DNA from: Candidatus Absconditabacterales bacterium
Lineage (GTDB): Bacteria; Patescibacteriota; Gracilibacteria; Absconditabacterales; Absconditicoccaceae
Reading direction: 5' to 3'
NCBI GenBank assembly: GCA_937923605.1
Contig: CALDTY010000003.1
Location: forward strand, 62,001-126,000
DNA length: 64,000 nt
The position numbers and the translations under genes are program-made. Below the pieces are notes generated by a model. That model saw only the letters and a program-made list of their open reading frames with translations. It did not search any database and had not been told where the DNA came from. Shown here one piece after another: positions 35,168 to 50,668 of this stretch (its first letter is position 1; every line of letters starts with the position of its first letter).

Positions 35168-37290
35168 TCGATAAGCTTTCTAACTGAAGTAATGTATGTA
35201 CGAATTTTTTCAATTCCTTGTTCTAATTCTGTAGCATCTAGCTCAGAAGGTGTTTCTTCTAGTCTGCTTACTAGATTATCTGCTTGTGAATAAGCTGCAA
35301 TAGCATATCTTAATGCATCTGCATTATTTATGAGTCTTGCTTTATTTAGAATTGAACGAGAATCTTTCTTCAGTACTTGTAATGTTTTTTCTAATTCTAA
35401 CATATATTCAGGGGATACGGCTACTATATCTTCTTGATTCTCTTCGATAGTATTATCAGGATTTCATTGTTCGATATCATTATCATCTTGCTCTGGAAGA
35501 GCAATTAAGTCATCATAACCTTCTTTTTTTACAGTATCGTTCGTGTCACTATCTTTTCCTGGGATAGTCACTACATCAGAGACAGGTCCTTTCAGATCTA
35601 AATCGTTTCTTTCTCAAGGAGTGCCTCAAGAAAACATAACTTTCCAAATGAGCCATCCTAATCATACAAGGATAATTAAGAAAAGTAGTCCCAATAGTCT
35701 AATTAGCCATTTTCTCCAGTTAAATCAATTATTATAACTAGGAGATTCATCATCATCTTCTTCATCGAAAAAATCTGCACTGATACTTTCAATATCTTTT
35801 TTGGTAGATACAATTGTTTCTGGAGTTTGCATAGTATCAATCGGTGCTTTTAATGAGATATCTTCTTTTATTATGGCTGAAGTATCAAGTTCATTACGAA
35901 CTTCAATATTTTTTTCAGTTTTCATCTGTTGCTTAGTAGATAAATCATCAATTTGAGATGACTGTGTGTTAATATTTGAACTTTCAATATCATCAAGTGA
36001 GGATATATCTATTTGGTTTTCAGATCACTTTTTGATTGGAGCTATTTCTCCTAGCTCAATTTCAGGTATAGATGTAATTTTTTCTAATCAAGCATCAACA
36101 GCGCCAATATTAGTAATATCTTGAATATTGATAGTAGCATCATCATTTATTCAGCTAGCTTCAGGAATTATACTAGATTCTTCCTTAAGTTTTTCTTCCT
36201 TAAGCTTATCTTCCTTAAGCTTATCTTCCTTAAGCTTATCTTCCTTAAGCTTATCTTCCTTAAGTTTTTCTTCCTTAAGTTTTTCTTCCTTAAGCTTATC
36301 TTCCTTAAGCTTATCCTCCTTAAGCTTATCTTCCTTAAGTTTTTCTTCCTTAAGCTTATCTTCCTTAAGTTTTTCTTCCTTAAGCTTATCTTCCTTAAGT
36401 TTTTCTTCCTTAAGCTTATCTTCTTTAAGCTTATCTTCTTTAAGCTTATCTTCTTTAAGCTTATCTTCCTTAAGCTTATCTTCCTTAAGTTTATCTTCCT
36501 TAAGCTTATCTTCCTTAAGCTTATCTTCTTTAAGCTTATCTTCTTTAAGCTTATCTTCTTTAAGCTTATCTTCTTTAAGTTTATCATTCTTGAGTTCATT
36601 TTCACTTATCTCTTTCTTGCTTCAGATTTTTTTTCAAATAATGATAGCTTCTTCAAAATTCTTTCATCATCACATTCCATTTTTAATCGCTTTAATTTGA
36701 TCTTTTAAATCATCTTCTTCATCTATTAGCCAAACATCAAAACGATTTCCTTCTTGATTCTTATGCAGAGAGTGTCTCTTGAAGTCTACATGCACATTAT
36801 AGATTTTTGTACCATTTTTGATATATTCTGTTCATTTTGTTCTTCATTTATCATCTTCCCAAAGATCTTCTGGCTGATCATCTTTGAACCATACAAGTTT
36901 ATGCTCTCATTTCTTATGAGGCACAATTGCATAAATCTTCTCTAAATCTTTAATATCAACTCATTCTAGGGTGAGGTAATTTAACTGAGGTGATGCGTTA
37001 TTTTTAGATGATTCCTTTCTTTTTTGAATATATGCATCTAGATCACCTATATCATCAATCATATGACCTGAATCTTTTATATTGATATTTGGTTTTTTTG
37101 ATTTCTTTTCAGTATCTTTTATCACAGTTTTCTTGCTAGATTTAAATTTCTTAGCAGATTTTTTTTCGCTAAGTTCTCATTCAATTTTTCAATCAATGTC
37201 ATCAATATTAATTGATTTCACAATATCATCAAATTTTTGTGTTTTTTTAGAAGAAGATTTCGAACCTTTACCTGTTTTTTCGTCAGCCAT
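35164..37290 (-). CDS. Membrane protein with a long KLKE(D/E) repeat
   Basis: A 708-residue protein starting MADEKTGKGSKSSSKK. A Lys/Asp-rich N-terminal part of about 235 residues contains EHKLVWFKDDQPEDLW. About 27 tandem copies of KLKED or KLKEE follow, then an acidic linker, one transmembrane segment (WLIRLLGLLFLIILVGLGWL, near residue 530) and a soluble C-terminal helical domain. It lies downstream of ftsK on the same strand. No family recognised; the repeat should form a long charged helix. Confidence 0.8.
36181..36585 (-). repeat. 15-base tandem repeat (about 27 copies)
   Basis: Units of TTCCTTAAGCTTATC on the plus strand code for DKLKE on the minus strand. Variants are C/T changes and a TTTTTC form giving EEKLKE. 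All three plus-strand or minus-strand frames remain open through most of the array, an effect of the 15-base period. Confidence 0.95.
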
Positions 37291-37352
37291 AGCTATAAAC
37301 AAAAATAAATTTACTCGTTATACTAAGTATAATTAAAAGAAATTATTTTGTC

Positions 37353-37375
37353 AAAAAAAGACATCTAAAGATGCC
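37353..37375 (-). terminator. Intrinsic terminator of ftsK
   Basis: On the minus strand GGCATCT-TT-AGATGTC followed by seven T lies right after the ftsK stop. Confidence 0.75.
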
Positions 37376-39577
37376 TTATATAAGTATTTCTCTTCATTTA
37401 GAACCAATTTGCGGTCCAACAACTCATCTTTCTTCTAAGATATCAATCAATCTTGCTGCACGTGGGAATCATACTCATAGTTTTCTTTGTAACATAGTAG
37501 CAGAAGCCTTTCTTGTCTGTGCTATAATTTGCATTGCTTGTTCAATTAATTCTTCGTCACTGTCGCTTACATCTCATCAAGCTCATGCTATTCAAGATCA
37601 TTTATTTTCTAGTATACGCATTATCTCTGGATGATAGATATCTTCTTCCGTTAGGTTAGACATATATTTTTCTTTGATTGCTGAAACAATTTTTTCTGTT
37701 TCAGTTGTGTCTATAAATGGTCACTGAATTCTAATCGGATATTTGCTTTTTGGGTCCATATATAACAAGTCTCACTTTCAAACAAGATCCTCAGCTCACT
37801 TCATATCTAATATAGTTCTACTATCAATTTGAGATACAACTCAAAATGAAATTCTAGTTGGTATATTCGCTTTTATCAATCATGTAATAACATTCACACT
37901 TGGTCTTTGGGTTGCTAATATTAGATGAATTCATACTGCACGAGCCATTTGAGCAATGCGTGCAATATATTGTTCTGTATCTTTTTTATTTCAACTCATC
38001 ATCAAGTCGGCTAGTTCATCTATAATAATAACTAAGCGATACATTTTCTCTTTTTCGTCTTCTACTTTATCATTATATTCATCTATATTTCTTACTTTTG
38101 CATCTTTAAGAAGTTTATATCTTTCGTTCATATATCAAACAGCTCGTTTTAAGATTTTGACTGCTTTATCAGGTTGGGTGATGATCGGAGCTAGTAAATA
38201 GGGTATTCATTCGTAAATCCCCAACTCAACTTGTTTTGGATCAATCATGATAAATTTAAGTTCACTTGGTGTATTTTGATACATTAAGGAAGCAATAAAT
38301 CAATTTATACCAACAGATTTACCAGATCATGTGGCTCAGGCAACTAATAAGTGAGGCATTTTTTCTAATGGTTTAACAACTTGTTCTCATCAAATTCCTT
38401 TTCATATAATGAGTCATGTTCGGTTTTCTTTCATTGATTGTGAAAATTCTAGTGAGTTATAGCTATCTCATAATCTCACCATTTGAGGTCTAGGGTTTGG
38501 TATTTCAATACCAACAGAATCTGTTCAAGGGATAGGAGCTAGTACTCTCAATGATTTAGTTCTTAGAGAAAGAGCTAAATCTTTCTTGAGGTTCTCAATC
38601 TTTGAAACTTTGATTCATGCTTGTGGTTTTATCTTGATTTGCATAACTGTAGGCCCAATATTGAATCATTCTATATCGACATCAATTCAAAATTCAGCAA
38701 GTTTGTTTTTAATTCATTGTGCTTTTTTTAATAACCGATCTTCATCTACAGTTACATCCTGTGTAGGAGCTTTTTCTAGGATATCCATAGAGTAGGTAGG
38801 TTTGTCTTTTGGAAAGCTAACATGAATATCTTTGATCATTTGTAGATCTTCTTTTTTCTGAACTGATTTGTTCAATTTGTTTTTTATCAATGTCTTGAGT
38901 GTTTGTTTGTCTTCATCTTCATTTCTAATTTCTTTTACTATGTCGTTTGTTATTGCTGCAGTTGAGACTTGTTTGACTGCAGTATTTTTTGTTGCTACTA
39001 CTTTTTTGGTTGATCTTTTGACTGTTTCATAACTATCTTTCATACTTTCAAATTTGATTGATGGAATTTTGACCTTATAGTATAGTCAGATTGCAATCAA
39101 AGTTGCAACAAGAGCAGCTATAAAAAATCATTTAATTGCATTTGGCGATCATCAAAACAGATAATCAGCCGCTAGAATTCATAGGTATCAAAGTCGTCAA
39201 CCATGAGCTTCAATTGAATTTCTAACAGTCTCTGAAGACCAATCTGCAAGATTGATTCCAATTAGTTGGAAATTTAAGATCGACGAAATGAAAAATAAGA
39301 GAAAAAATGCAAATTTAAACAGCCATGATGTATAAAAACGTTGTCTAAATAAGATGAAACTTCATGTTATAATAAGGAACGCAAAAAAAACAAAACTTCA
39401 TTGGTATCAAAAAAGTTGGATTGTTGGATATGATAACACTCTAAAAAGAGGGGATTCTTGAGCAGTGTAGAAAGAAAAGAAAAAAAGCGCTCATAAGATG
39501 ATGAGCAATCCTCATAATTTATATCTATCTAAGACTATACTAGCTGATTTTCTACGAGTTGTTTTGCGACGAGCCAA
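37376..39577 (-). CDS. ftsK: DNA translocase FtsK/SpoIIIE
   Basis: Hexameric DNA pump that clears chromosomes from the division septum. The 733-residue protein has four or so N-terminal membrane segments, a charged linker, Walker A in GATGSGKSVGING (about residue 416), FIMIDPKQVELGIYE and a C-terminal gamma winged helix (MLQRKLGVGFPRAARLID). No ATG lies between the upstream TAA and the linker; TTG at 39575-39577 (MARRKTTRRK) is the likely start. Confidence 0.92.
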
Positions 39578-44173: not shown

Positions 44174-47100
44174 TTATTCTTCTTCATCTTTTTTTAGATA
44201 ACGTTCATCAGGCACTATCATGGATTTAGATTTCCTTGGTTTAAATTCAGAGACATGGTAGATAGGTTTTGGATACTTAGTTGTTTTAGTTTTTTGTATT
44301 TCAAATGTTGTTGGGAACGTGTTAGGATCGATCATAATTCATTTTTTTGCGCATACTTGTTTATATGTATTTACTACTTTTGGATGTATATCATCATTTT
44401 TTAACACATTAATTAGACATTCTAGAATATCTAATCCATCTACATGTTTAAAATAATCTCATAGTGAAATAAATCTTTCTTGAAGACTTAGGAGATAATC
44501 TTTTCTTTTTTGATCTCATGTGAAACTACGAATCTTCTGGGTAAGATTAGTCATAAAAGATTGAAAATTAGAACTATCCTGCACGTTTGGGTTACTTGAT
44601 TCGTTTGAGCTAAATCCATCTACCATGATCTCAATAAAGGTATCGATCATTCGATCTTCTTGCTTATTTAGTTGCATTCATCCTAGATCAAATATTCACA
44701 CAGTTGTTGTTGATTCATCATATCTTACGTTTTCTCCATGACGATCGACATCTACAAACGCTCAAGTAAGCTGTAAGTAGAGTTCAATTATGATTATACA
44801 TTTCGCAATTTGCTTCGTTGATAGGGGCTTATCTATATTCAATTGATTAAAGTGTGGACCTAATAATTGGTTCATGTATGTAAATCTATCTCAATAGTGA
44901 AATATCTTTGCAGTATCAAAACGGATAACAGTATCTCATATTTTGATTTCTAATTCTGAATATTGTTGGTGTGCAATTGCATGTTTCTGTAAATGTGTGC
45001 TTGGGTTAATTTCTTCAAATGTTGTTTTTTGAACTTGTGAAACTAGATTCTCCATGTCGGTCAAGATGGTTTCTGAGATATGTAGTTCAGTTTTATCCCT
45101 TACTAGATTTGATCTGAGTTGTGATATAGTGTTCTTTATATCTGTAAATCATTGTAAAGCAGTCTTTTCAATATATTTTGGTTGAAGAGTAAGGAACTTT
45201 TTTTCATTATCTTTAGTGGTTATTTGCACTCAAACGTCAATTGAGGCTCTAAACACTTCACAGACCCTATCTATATAAGGATCAATGACATCTCTAGGCA
45301 CATTTTTCTTAATTTCATTAAACATAATTTTACGAGTTGGAATTCATGCTTTACTTTTTAAATTCTTAAATTCAGTTGTAATGTCATTGTACATATCTGG
45401 TAGAGAATGCATTTTCTGTGCTGTTTTTATTGTAGCAGTTCCCATAGTTTCAAAAATCGTCGCAAGCACTTTTCATTGATTGAATCAATCATTTCTATTT
45501 TTTTCTTGAGCTGCCATCATCCCACATAAAAATAAACTCTTCTTATATGGAGGGATTACTTGTATATAAGCACGTAATATTGCTTTCATCTCTTTTTTAT
45601 TTGCCATTTTTTTACTAAATAACTTATTGGAAATGAGGGTAAATGCTTGTTTTCGATTGTTAGTTTTTGATTTTAAAATTCTACTAATTATTAAAGTTCT
45701 AAGACTGATCTGTAATCATCGAAAATTATAATATGTATTTGTAAGTAGAGTATCAATTCAATTAATTAATTTTTTTTCAAATTTATCAAGATTCGAATAG
45801 TCATCATTTTCTAAGGCAAGTTTCATTTCTTCTAGTGATTTTTGATCAAAATTCTTATCTATGTATCCTAAGTTGTTTTTTCCTTTAAACCCAAGTGCAT
45901 TATGTTCACTTGAACTCATTCCAATCATTGCTTTTTCTAATACATAGTTAATCATCTTGTTTTTTTCTTTTTTATTGCATGAACTATTCAAAAAATTAAG
46001 CAATATATTAACATTTCAATAAACTTCAAAACTATTGATTACAGCTTGATATCAAGTTATTGCTTTAGAGCTAGATCAAAGATAATCAACTCATATCTTT
46101 TCATAAAACAATATTTCATAAATACTATTAGTAAGTTCAATCTGGGATTCAATTCTATGACATATTTCATTGATGAGATTCGTTCAGTCAAGTGAATTGA
46201 CTGTATCTGAAATTTGTTGAATAATAGTAAGTATCTTTTTCTTATATGAATCAGACCTATCATCAGATCAATATGTTTCTTCAATGGTCGATACTATACT
46301 ATCGATGAGTTCTTTTCTTGTATCAAAATTCTCCAATCTTTTTCAGCTTAATAGCTGAATATAGTACTTTATTTGCTTTTCTTTATTCTCATTGTCGTTA
46401 ATATTTTTGATGAGTAAGTGTATAAACTCATCCATTGTTGAGTTTCAATAATCATTAAACCTATTTTCGAGAATCACCTTACAGAATATGATGCTACGGT
46501 GCAGATCATCAAAATTCCATAAAGAGCGATCTTCAAATCAAGATTTCACAATTTTACTAAAGTTATTCATATCTTCCCTATCTATTCAATTTGGAAATCT
46601 ATTGAAAAAACTAGTCGCAATGATTACCCAGTCAAAAAAATATTTCTTTGTCAAGAAACTAGGTGACAATATAACTAGTTCTGCAAAATGAATCATTGAA
46701 GTTAATTCCGTCTCTTTTCAATAAATCTCTTCAGTTGGATTGAGTACATTAGCTTTAGTTATTCAGCAGATCTCAGAAAGAGATTCTTTTATTCTTAGAA
46801 GAAACTCAGGATCTTCATTAAATCATTTTTTTAAAAATAATGATTTAACTCACAATAAGTCAATAAAATTTAGAAACTCACTTTTTTCAATTTCTCAATA
46901 ATTTTCTAGACAAGTATTTATAATGAATTCAATTTGTTCTGTGTATAAACACGCATTCATTATATTGTACTCATTTAATAATCTTGACTTGGATCACATC
47001 TTAATTTCTTGGTTCCTTTTTGCATTAGCTATATATTTTTGATCATCATAACCCAGTAACTTACTACTAAAATAAGTTCATATTATTGATTTATCCATTT

Positions 47101-47605
47101 CATCAAGTCAGTTCAATTTTTCTACTATACCTTTGAGTGAAGAGTGTGTTTTCAGTAATAGAATGAAATCTTTCATAATTCAAATATTTCATTCTTTATT
47201 TACTTTGGAAGTATCTTTAATATGTTGAATAACATTCTCTAAGCTTATAGATTTAGAATTTGTTTCATTAGAGTTGATCTTTTTTGATAAGAGTAGCTTT
47301 TGTAGATCATTTCTAAATCAATTCGGCAAACTAAATATATTTCAGTATATATCAATTGTTAATGGATTTTGCCAACCTCCTGATATGTTTTCAAATACGT
47401 GTTTTACTTGATACTCTGGAGATGTAAGGTTAAATGTATTTTCTTGATTATATATATCAGTTATTACCTTGTTTGGTGCATGTTCTATGGCTCTAATATC
47501 TTTTACTCATAGTAAGATAAGAACTTGGGATATAAATGTCGTGTTATCTTCTTCAATTTCTTCATTCATCCAAATGATATGTTGTTTTCGTGGTATTGTG
47601 GACAT
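44174..47605 (-). CDS. Giant protein, C-terminal portion with ABC1/UbiB-like kinase domain
   Basis: This 1143-codon frame carries helical repeat-like sequence and, in the last 350 residues, a UbiB-like domain: FETMGTATIKTAQKMHSLPD (compare GPTFIKLGQ..STRPD), PRDVIDPYIDRVCEVFRASI, then the catalytic loop FVDVDRHGENVRYD and the metal-binding IFDLGGM. The frame is open upstream to 47668; the first ATG is at 47605 (MSTIPRKQHIIW). The upstream gene continues into it if two one-base shifts are allowed, so it is probably the C-terminal two thirds of one protein. Function unknown. Confidence 0.75.
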
Positions 47606-49349
47606 ATTTTTGATTACAAATGTCTCGCATCACCCCTTGAAGCATCTTTTCTGAGATTCATAATTTTCTTACAAGTAGAACTATGTTTTCAGCTAATTCA
47701 CTTGCTTGATAACTATCTTTCACATGAATGAAGTCAGATATATGACGATTTATTTGACTAAGAGTTCATATGGGTAAAGGTGAGTTTTGAGTGTCAAACC
47801 ATCTACAAACATGCGGAATTATTGATGTAGTTAAATTTAGTTTTGAAGCTTTTATTAAATAGTTATCTTTGTCATGATCATCTAAAGTCGTAGTGAATTC
47901 TGCGAATATATAATTGAATTCTGTAAACTTTCTTTCATCAAAGTTGTAATACGATGGAAGTTTATCAATCTCTTCAAAAGCTTGATCAATCATTGTATGG
48001 TTGTTAGAGAATGTGATGACACTTTGAAGGTATAATTTATATATAATTTGATCGAAATGTTGCACAACTAAGTTTTCTTTATTTTTTTCAACAAACGAAC
48101 CTCGTCTTTGATACGATCTAGTTATGTCACTGTCATCTGTTGTTTCTGGAAGTGATTTTATTATACGGTCTAATTCATTTCTCCTTCTGTATTTCTGTGA
48201 ACTTTTATTGTCATCTTCTGAAAAATACGCAATCGGTACTTGTTGAAAAACATCTGTAATTAAGTCAATTGCCTCTGAACGTGAACTTAGACGCTTAAAT
48301 GTCTTCTTTAGATACTTATATAATGGAGCAAGTAATTCTTTTGAATATGGAGTAGGATCTTCTTGAATAAACTGGTTTAGTAATTCATAATATATATATA
48401 AGTCTTCATCATTGATTTCTATCAATCAAATTAGGGTAATTAAATATTGTTTGTTGTATTCTGAACTAGATTTTTGTGAAACATTCTCTTTTACATATGT
48501 TATTTGTTCATTAGTCGATAGTCTTCAGTAATCTGTTAATCTTAATGTTTCTTGGAAATGAGAGACAAAACTAAAATCATCAACCTCATTAATAAATTTG
48601 GTATCTATTTTACTATTTTCACCATCAAGTCATCCATGAAAATGATCTAATCAAGCTATACATGCTTCAATATTAGTTAATCTTTGCTTTACATCACCAT
48701 GTACTCAAAATATATCTACTACTATTTGTTGAAAATCTCTTTTCTTATATGGGTTTGTTATTTTTATAACAAAATTATATATCTTGCTGACATCGTATCC
48801 TGCATCAAAAAGTGCAAAAATACTTCTTATATCGGAACTTCGTTCTTCTGTTATTGAGTTATAGTGATCTCAGTAATCATTATAAAATCATAAATGAGTA
48901 AGTTCATGTCATAAGATAAAAGCAAGTTCTGTTTCGTTATCTGCTGATAAAAATAATCATTTGCTTATTCATATGATTTGTTGATTTTCAATTAATTTAT
49001 GTGAAAAAAATGCATTAATTTTATCGGTATCTCGAATCAGAAAGTGAACATTATCTATATGCTGATGGTGATCTGGAAATAGCCTTTTTGCAATATCTTT
49101 TAAATATTTTTGAGTTTCTATTGTTTCAGGATCTTCAGGGTAGGAAAGTTGATAGTTCTCGCATACATTCTGTTCAGATTGAGGATATGAGAGTTGTTGA
49201 TTTATAATGTTTGGTTTAAATTTTCAATCTTCTTGATTTCAATTTCATTCTTTATTGTTTTTTAACGTTAGAAAAGGTTCATTCTTCATTTCATTGAATG
49301 AATTTCTTTTTTTAGGAGATTCTTCATATCATTGTTCAAGAGGAGTCAT
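47544..49349 (-). CDS. Giant protein, N-terminal portion with HExxH metallopeptidase motif
   Basis: A 601-codon frame whose last 40 or so codons run out of frame. The region near residue 148 reads FLSADNETELAFILGHELTHLG, with zinc-binding HELTH (48894-48908) and a downstream EERSSDIRS that could supply the third ligand, as in M48-type gluzincins. No signal peptide or membrane segment is seen. Frame changes near 47661-47668 and 47614-47622 would join it to the UbiB-like part, giving about 1,720 residues. Either the gene is broken or the sequence has two missing homopolymer bases. Confidence 0.75.
47612..47668 (-). other. Double frameshift in the giant gene
   Basis: Coding sequence runs in one frame to VLLVRK, switches to a second frame reading IMNLRKDASRGDARH, then to a third reading VIKNMSTIPRKQH. 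Adding one A in the AAAA run (about 47664) and one T in the TTT run (about 47618) restores a single frame. Confidence 0.75.
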
Positions 49350-49452: not shown

Positions 49453-50409
49453 TTAAACGACATCTAGTATCTTAGGATCTTTCCCTTGCACAAATTGATC
49501 TGATCCTCATCATTTTAATCATTGTTGCTTTGCGAAATCTTTCGCTGAAAATCCCTTATTTCCTACATAAATTGCAAAGTTTCATTCTTTATTGTATATA
49601 ATCCAATTGCGATCTGATCGTCTTGATTTTGCAGCATTTATAACCTCTTTAAAATCATGATGGCTGAGGTCTGTATCAGTAATATTTAAGACACATCAGT
49701 TTCACCAATCACTTCCCACTGAGGGAAGAGAGCATTCCAAATGAAAATCATCTAAATGTGTACAAATTATTTTTCATTGTAGTGATGCATGGTCATCTTG
49801 AAGATGGTGATAGGATGAGAGAATCTTTTCTAATTTGTCTTCGAGTTGTTTTGGTTGACAGTCCAAGCGCTTTGATATATCAATAATACGCATTTCGTTT
49901 CTTTGTGCTTCTTCAATAACTTTTGTTCCAGTAACAGCAACTATCCTTCTGATTCAACTAGCTACGGAGCTATGTTCAATAATTTTCAAAGCACCTATAT
50001 GAGCAGTATTGTTTACGTGAGTTCATCAACAAAATTCTACTGATTCGATATCTAATCAATTATCAACCTCTGAAACAATAGTTACAATACGGACTATATC
50101 TCAGTACTTTTCTTCAAAAAATGCTTTTGCTGAAGTTTTTTGAGCTTCTTCTTTATCCATTTCCTTTGTGATGACAGCTATTCCTTGTTTAATTCGATCA
50201 TTGATTGTCGACTCCAACAACTGAATATCTCATTCTTCTATTGGATTTTTACATGCAAAATCAAACCTTAAATAATCATCATCAACTAGAGATCATGCTT
50301 GTTTTGTAGAGTTCAACATCTTATCTAAAGCGAAATGCAAAAGGTGCGTAGCAGTGTGTGCACGCATTTTCGCTTCTCTTTGGACTTTATTAACAGTTAA
50401 TTTTGCCAT
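49453..50409 (-). CDS. Stand-alone alanyl-tRNA editing protein (AlaX-like, with DHHA1 region)
   Basis: A 318-residue protein lacking the AlaRS catalytic and tRNA-binding domains. The editing site is clear: HTATHLLHFAL at the N-terminus and CGGTHVNNTAHIG further on, giving the zinc ligands HxxxH and CxxxH. The C-terminal 140 residues resemble a DHHA1 domain and end with KGGGSDQFVQGKDPKI. It should deacylate mischarged Ser- or Gly-tRNA(Ala). Both glycines of CGGTH are TGA. Confidence 0.88.
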
Positions 50410-50416
50410 AACAATA

Positions 50417-50668
50417 TTAGTTTCAAGTTCCAACTAGAGTATCATTTAATGCTCAAGTAATAATGTCACCCGATCAAGTTGTAATACTTACAGTTCCACC
50501 AGTAATATTTAAATTATTCAATGCATCTTGATATGCAGCTTGTTGAACTGCTTGATTTTGAGTAGGTCATGATAGGTATACCGTAATAACTCATATAACA
50601 GAGAATAACAATACAGCGATAATGAGAACTATAAATGCAAATAATAATTTTTTCTTCTTCTTAATCAT
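50417..50668 (-). CDS. Small exported or membrane protein
   Basis: An 83-residue protein with a Lys-rich start, one hydrophobic segment (about 8-32) and a short polar domain rich in Gly, Thr and Asn. It is transcribed in line with the TPR gene upstream and alaX-like gene downstream (eight bases apart). Function unknown. Confidence 0.65.

What the first reader, a model, noticed from the sequence alone, without database searches (positions are those of the whole stretch)
44174..49349. Giant HExxH-peptidase/UbiB-kinase gene
A reading frame of about 1,720 codons joins an M48-like HELTH metallopeptidase region at the N-terminus, long helical sequence and an ABC1/UbiB-like domain (IKTAQKMHSLPD, DVDRHGENVRYD, IFDLGG). 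I know of no such combination. It has no signal peptide, so it would act inside the cell or be delivered by another route, perhaps as an effector against a host or prey.
Basis: partly seen in the sequence, partly recalled or inferred. Interest (0 to 1): 0.75.

Follow-up and report, generated by a model that had tools for sequence, protein, structure and literature searches.

The report
Giant protease–UbiB-like kinase protein family

Summary
The combination is real, but the window does not hold one 1,720-codon frame. With code 25 (UGA=Gly) there are two minus-strand frames: ORF-A 47544-49349 (601 aa, M48 zincin) and ORF-B 44174-47605 (1,143 aa, helical region plus ABC1/UbiB-like domain), overlapping by 62 nt in different frames. 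I found 30 homologues with HExxH and the UbiB-like domain in a single open frame (1,200-1,930 aa), so fusion is the family's normal state and the window copy is the exception (assembly indel, recent fission or break: undecided). M48 is supported by Pfam, motifs and fold (BepA); UbiB-like by NCBIfam on relatives and by fold (COQ8A, E=9e-8) on ORF-B itself. The UbiB-like domain keeps the KxGQ Lys/Gln, ExD Glu, catalytic Asp and DFG Asp in 30/30, but lacks both the beta3 Lys and the alphaC Glu in 29/30. No signal peptide or membrane helix. Most likely a cytosolic protease controlled by a non-canonical nucleotide- or ligand-binding UbiB-like tail. The genes are patchy, sometimes duplicated, often beside recombinases, in Gracilibacteria/Peribacteria, Bdellovibrionales, Micavibrio-type alphaproteobacteria and Caenarcanales: a role in attacking other cells is plausible but not shown.

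The parts
47544..49349 (-). ORF-A, 601 aa (code 25): M48-like gluzincin domain (about residues 66-200) followed by a helical region
   Evidence: open only with UGA=Gly; Pfam Peptidase_M48 2.4e-9; AlphaFold2 confident at about 66-200; Foldseek BepA 3.1e-6, 3c37 9e-5
48831..48908 (-). HELTH zinc-binding motif (residues 148-152) to third-ligand region TEERSSD (Glu168, Glu169)
   Evidence: H148, E149, H152, E168 and E169 invariant in 11 aligned N-termini
44174..47605 (-). ORF-B, 1143 aa (code 25): long all-helical region and C-terminal ABC1/UbiB-like domain (about residues 700-1000)
   Evidence: AlphaFold2; Foldseek COQ8A 9.4e-8, Rv3197 5.8e-5; homologues NCBIfam UbiB 5.6e-11 and Pfam ABC1 1.6e-5
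45416..45427 (-). KxGQ-equivalent motif KTAQ (residues 727-730)
   Evidence: K727 and Q730 invariant; Lys and Gln 30/30
44681..44752 (-). catalytic loop DVDRHGEN (D954, H956) to the DFG-equivalent DLG (D973)
   Evidence: both Asp invariant in 30/30
47544..47605 (-). 62-nt overlap of ORF-A and ORF-B in different frames (+1); no Shine-Dalgarno-like sequence before the ORF-B ATG

Best explanation
The locus is a copy, split into two overlapping frames, of a family of giant cytosolic proteins with the order M48 zinc peptidase - long helical scaffold - UbiB/ABC1-like domain. Shown here: the order, the intact zinc site, the retained KxGQ/ExD/Asp/Asp set, the coupled loss of the beta3 Lys and alphaC Glu, no signal peptide or membrane helix, patchy accessory distribution. 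Inferred: the N-terminal zincin cleaves proteins inside a cell; the helical region binds the substrate or a partner; the UbiB-like tail no longer phosphorylates by the usual chemistry but binds a nucleotide or another ligand (its KxGQ Lys and ExD Glu filling the pocket) and switches the protease on or off. The genes are probably accessory functions used against, or in response to, other microbes.
For: 30 homologues with HExxH and the UbiB-like domain in one open frame. Zinc-site residues invariant. Independent fold matches for both of the window's own proteins. Pocket residues tallied in 30 domains: KxGQ Lys 30, Gln 30, ExD Glu 30, catalytic Asp 30, DFG Asp 30; beta3 Lys 1 and alphaC Glu 1, both in the same sequence (L075). 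Giants with a canonical pocket also exist (L075; L085). No transmembrane or signal segment in about 30 members, whereas the ordinary UbiB found alongside has a hydrophobic C-terminal tail. Accessory pattern: 1 of 49 genomes in the window's family, 11/142 in the Micavibrio-labelled order, 14/46 in the Bdellovibrionales-labelled class, two copies in G580, G685 and G953, and an integrase, resolvase or transposase as close neighbour in 5 of 11 loci inspected.
Against: No substrate, activity or localisation is known. No conserved neighbour gene points to a pathway. The AlphaFold2 models are weak outside the two domains (mean pLDDT 55 and 61). Some kinases without the usual beta3 Lys are active (WNK1, listed as active in PMC4718504), so loss of the Lys-Glu pair does not prove loss of catalysis. 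Seven of 30 sequences have Arg at the Lys position.
Confidence: 0.5

Rival explanations
1. It is an effector: made by a predatory or epibiotic bacterium and delivered into the prey or host, where the protease destroys targets and the UbiB-like tail senses the prey cytoplasm.
For: Named records with the gene belong to Peribacteria/Peregrinibacteria, Bdellovibrionales, Micavibrio and Caenarcanales, groups that contain or neighbour known predators (PMC8080830, PMC7034301, PMC4451040); accessory, fast-evolving, sometimes duplicated genes next to mobile elements.
Against: No secretion signal recognised, no adjacent secretion genes, the lifestyle of these particular genomes is unknown, and the gene is absent from most members of the same groups.
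Confidence: 0.25
2. It is a defence or abortive-infection protein of the producer itself, with the protease let loose when the sensor tail is triggered.
For: Large helical sensor-like scaffold with an enzyme at one end; patchy; near recombinases.
Against: No PADLOC match; no defence neighbours identified; not found in phage, plasmid or IMG/VR collections.
Confidence: 0.12
3. It is a housekeeping protein of lipid or quinone metabolism (as UbiB/COQ8) with an added quality-control protease.
For: Fold and motif relation to UbiB/COQ8.
Against: Absent from nearly all relatives; lacks UbiB's hydrophobic tail and the Lys-Glu pair.
Confidence: 0.08
4. For the window copy only: it is a broken gene or an assembly error in an intact gene, not two functional genes.
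For: Fused state in all 30 relatives and a 62-nt overlap in another frame without a Shine-Dalgarno-like sequence; end branch of the window row long (2.62).
Against: Both frames are otherwise open and keep the invariant residues, so any break is recent or not real; gene fission with coupled translation is not excluded.
Confidence: 0.6

Closest known systems
M48 metallopeptidases: BepA/YfgC and the Geobacter protein Q74D82 (PDB 3c37)
   Same: zincin fold, HExxH plus downstream Glu, NAxF and VH(P/G) motifs; Pfam PF01435 above its cut-off; helical repeats follow the protease in BepA as here
   Different: BepA is a secreted periplasmic protein of about 490 aa; this family has no signal peptide, a much longer helical part and a UbiB-like tail
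UbiB/ABC1/COQ8 atypical kinase-like family (COQ8A/ADCK3; Rv3197)
   Same: fold (Foldseek 9.4e-8), KxGQ motif, ExD Glu, catalytic Asp, DFG Asp
   Different: mostly GSAS/GSGS in place of the Ala-rich loop, no beta3 Lys and no alphaC Glu in 29/30, no hydrophobic C-terminal tail, and part of a 1,200-1,930-aa protein
Giant proteins of the predatory CPR bacterium Vampirococcus lugosii (PMC8080830)
   Same: very large proteins in related host-dependent bacteria
   Different: those were inferred to be membrane/surface proteins with binding domains; this one is predicted soluble with enzyme domains

Membership tests
Peptidase M48 | HExxH with a third zinc ligand Glu downstream | tested here: met
   H148, E149, H152, E168, E169 invariant in 11 rows; HExxH in all 30 single-frame homologues
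Peptidase M48 | profile match above the curated cut-off | tested here: met
   window ORF-A 37.7 bits against 20.3; G159 protein 23.0; L029 32.4 and L022 27.2
Peptidase M48 | fold | tested here: met
   BepA 3.1e-6, 3c37 9.2e-5
Peptidase M48 | proteolytic activity | not testable with these tools
   needs a biochemical assay
UbiB/ABC1 (COQ8) | UbiB-type kinase-like fold | tested here: met
   COQ8A, ADCK3 and Rv3197 are the best PDB matches of the ORF-B model
UbiB/ABC1 (COQ8) | KxGQ and ExD motifs | tested here: met
   K and Q 30/30 (the G varies), ExD Glu 30/30; motifs as described in PMC4718504
UbiB/ABC1 (COQ8) | Ala-rich loop | tested here: not met
   first position Gly in 27/30, mostly GSAS/GSGS; window F-R-A-S
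UbiB/ABC1 (COQ8) | beta3 Lys - alphaC Glu pair | tested here: not met
   Lys 1/30, Glu 1/30; window Thr and His; canonical in L085
UbiB/ABC1 (COQ8) | catalytic Asp and DFG Asp | tested here: met
   30/30 each
UbiB/ABC1 (COQ8) | curated Pfam/NCBIfam cut-off | tested here: not met
   window ORF-B no match; only the L012 protein passes Pfam ABC1 (24.6 against 22.9); UbiB 41.7 bits against 487.55
Delivered effector of predatory bacteria | transfer into prey and harm to prey | not testable with these tools
   no signal or secretion neighbours found
Anti-phage defence protein | match to known defence families | tested here: not met
   no PADLOC match for five members

The most novel reading that the evidence does not exclude
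A previously unnamed family of giant signal-less proteins, shared by unrelated lineages that include predators and parasites of microbes, in which an M48 protease is controlled by a UbiB-type fold that has given up the kinase Lys-Glu pair for a KxGQ/ExD-based pocket: a shared weapon or sensor-protease of cell-on-cell predation.
Probability: 0.25. Interest if true: 0.85.

Novelty: new variant of a known kind. Interest (0 to 1): 0.6.

Why it matters
It defines a protein architecture that I found described nowhere (no whole-protein family in Pfam or NCBIfam; nothing in the held papers) and that recurs in several distant bacterial groups. It links proteolysis to the poorly understood UbiB fold, offers a natural experiment on what that fold does once its kinase Lys-Glu pair is gone, and gives a testable candidate for a factor shared by bacteria that live on other microbes.

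Tried and rejected
Single 1,720-codon gene in the window: rejected. Codes 11 and 6: no long frame here; code 25 fits. PhnJ match to ORF-B (0.022, below cut-off): rejected as chance. Lit phage-exclusion match to ORF-A (0.071): rejected as an HExxH coincidence. Viral, plasmid and phage origin: no matches. Defence: no PADLOC match. Conserved operon partner: none. Sequence searches of the PDB gave nothing useful for ORF-B or for the N-terminal alignment; only fold comparison did. The 'Euryarchaeota' hit L022 was rejected as archaeal: it shares its neighbour genes with G209, a genome of the window's class. The tree does not place the window row firmly and does not prove horizontal transfer.

Full report
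1. The observation. Under the standard code the region shows only a 219-aa fragment. Under code 25 (UGA=Gly) the window is densely coding. The finding's stretch resolves into ORF-A 47544-49349 (601 aa) and ORF-B 44174-47605 (1,143 aa), both on the minus strand. They lie in different frames (+1) and overlap by 62 nt. The stretch is 5,176 nt, so it cannot be one frame. UGA makes up 18 of 24 glycine codons in A and 38 of 53 in B; random sequence of the same dinucleotide make-up gives at most 244 open codons in 300 trials. So the coding is real, the code is right and the 'one gene' statement is wrong for this assembly.

2. Domains. ORF-A matches Pfam Peptidase_M48 (2.4e-9, cut-off passed), and its predicted structure matches E. 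coli BepA (3.1e-6) and 3c37 (9e-5). ORF-B has no family match above cut-off, but its predicted structure matches COQ8A/ADCK3 (9.4e-8) and Rv3197, and its relatives match NCBIfam UbiB (5.6e-11) and Pfam ABC1 (1.6e-5). In the other direction, the profile of the family's C-terminal domain picks up an ordinary 525-aa UbiB (2.4e-11; 1.4e-18). The rest of both proteins is predicted helical, at low confidence.

3. Relatives. Neither ORF has a relative in 48 other genomes of the same family. In the same class, G159 and G180 carry relatives of ORF-B in open frames of 1,678 and 1,719 aa; reading these shows HEMTH or HELVH near the N-terminus and KFGQ/KAGQ, DRHGGN and DF near the C-terminus of one protein. 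A profile scan of 84,980 genomes gave 12 loci: Peribacteria/Peregrinibacteria, a record labelled Euryarchaeota, Caenarcanales, Bdellovibrionales, Micavibrio and other alphaproteobacteria. Further searches found the family in 14 of 46 genomes of the Bdellovibrionales-labelled class, 11 of 142 in the Micavibrio-labelled order, 4 of 289 in that class, one of them ordinary UbiB, 2 of 146 in the Caenarcanales-labelled class and 3 of 211 across the window's phylum, including another class. Thirty homologues hold HExxH and the UbiB-like domain in one open frame of 1,200-1,930 aa; those lacking one end stop at or near a contig edge. I saw no homologue with the two parts as separate genes; only the window copy is split.

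4. Key residues. Eleven N-termini keep HExxH and the downstream Glu pair. Thirty C-terminal domains aligned with a true UbiB keep the KxGQ Lys and Gln, ExD Glu, catalytic Asp and DFG Asp without exception, but the beta3 Lys and the alphaC Glu survive only in L075; both are lost together everywhere else. L085, in the window's class, is a further giant with a canonical pocket; it and L075 fall with true UbiB in the tree, on long branches. In ADCK3 the KxGQ and ExD motifs fold into the active site, an Ala-rich loop replaces the Gly-rich one, and a single Ala-to-Gly change reverses the ADP preference and enables autophosphorylation (PMC4718504). Here the loop is mostly GSAS/GSGS, so the pocket combines a glycine-type loop with loss of the Lys-Glu pair: neither a standard UbiB nor a standard kinase.

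5. Context. Hydropathy shows no signal peptide or clear membrane helix in the family, unlike the ordinary UbiB. No neighbour gene is conserved. Close neighbours include a phage integrase (L021, L032), a serine recombinase (L022) and transposases (L028, L030). Three genomes carry two copies. The family was not found in the IMG/VR, phage and plasmid collections by the searches made, nor in PADLOC.

6. Mechanism. Shown: architecture, intact zinc site, altered but constrained UbiB-like pocket, soluble, accessory. Inferred: a cytosolic protease whose activity is set by the UbiB-like tail through nucleotide or ligand binding, with the helical part as scaffold. Use against prey or host fits the taxa, which include groups with known predators (Vampirococcus, PMC8080830; Micavibrionales as Bdellovibrio-like organisms, PMC7034301; Vampirovibrio, PMC4451040), but lifestyle was not tested for these genomes, and the scan's short exact patterns favour relatives of the query.

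7. The split. Because the fused state is universal in the relatives seen, the two-frame arrangement is an assembly indel, a recent break or a recent fission. These cannot be told apart from one assembly; reads are needed.

Noticed in passing
49453-50433 (-): A 326-aa frame holding only the editing/C-terminal half of alanyl-tRNA synthetase (tRNA_SAD 3.6e-14) with no catalytic half beside it: a free-standing AlaX-type protein or a split AlaRS.
   Followed up: no
36001-38000: Sharp strand-composition anomaly (GC skew -0.25, AT skew -0.25) with long frames open on both strands.
   Followed up: no
L022 (NYYK01000002.1): Record titled Euryarchaeota archaeon ARS80 shares several neighbouring genes with G209 of the window's class, so the title or the binning is probably wrong.
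   Followed up: partly
L085 (G258) and L075 (G651): Giants with HExxH plus a canonical UbiB pocket (beta3 Lys and alphaC Glu kept), possibly the ancestral state or separate fusions.
   Followed up: partly
L073, L074: Members with the textbook DRHPGN..DFG motif of ABC1 kinases yet without the beta3 Lys, bridging the family to ordinary ABC1 proteins.
   Followed up: partly
G580, G685, G953: Two diverged copies of the giant gene in one genome.
   Followed up: no
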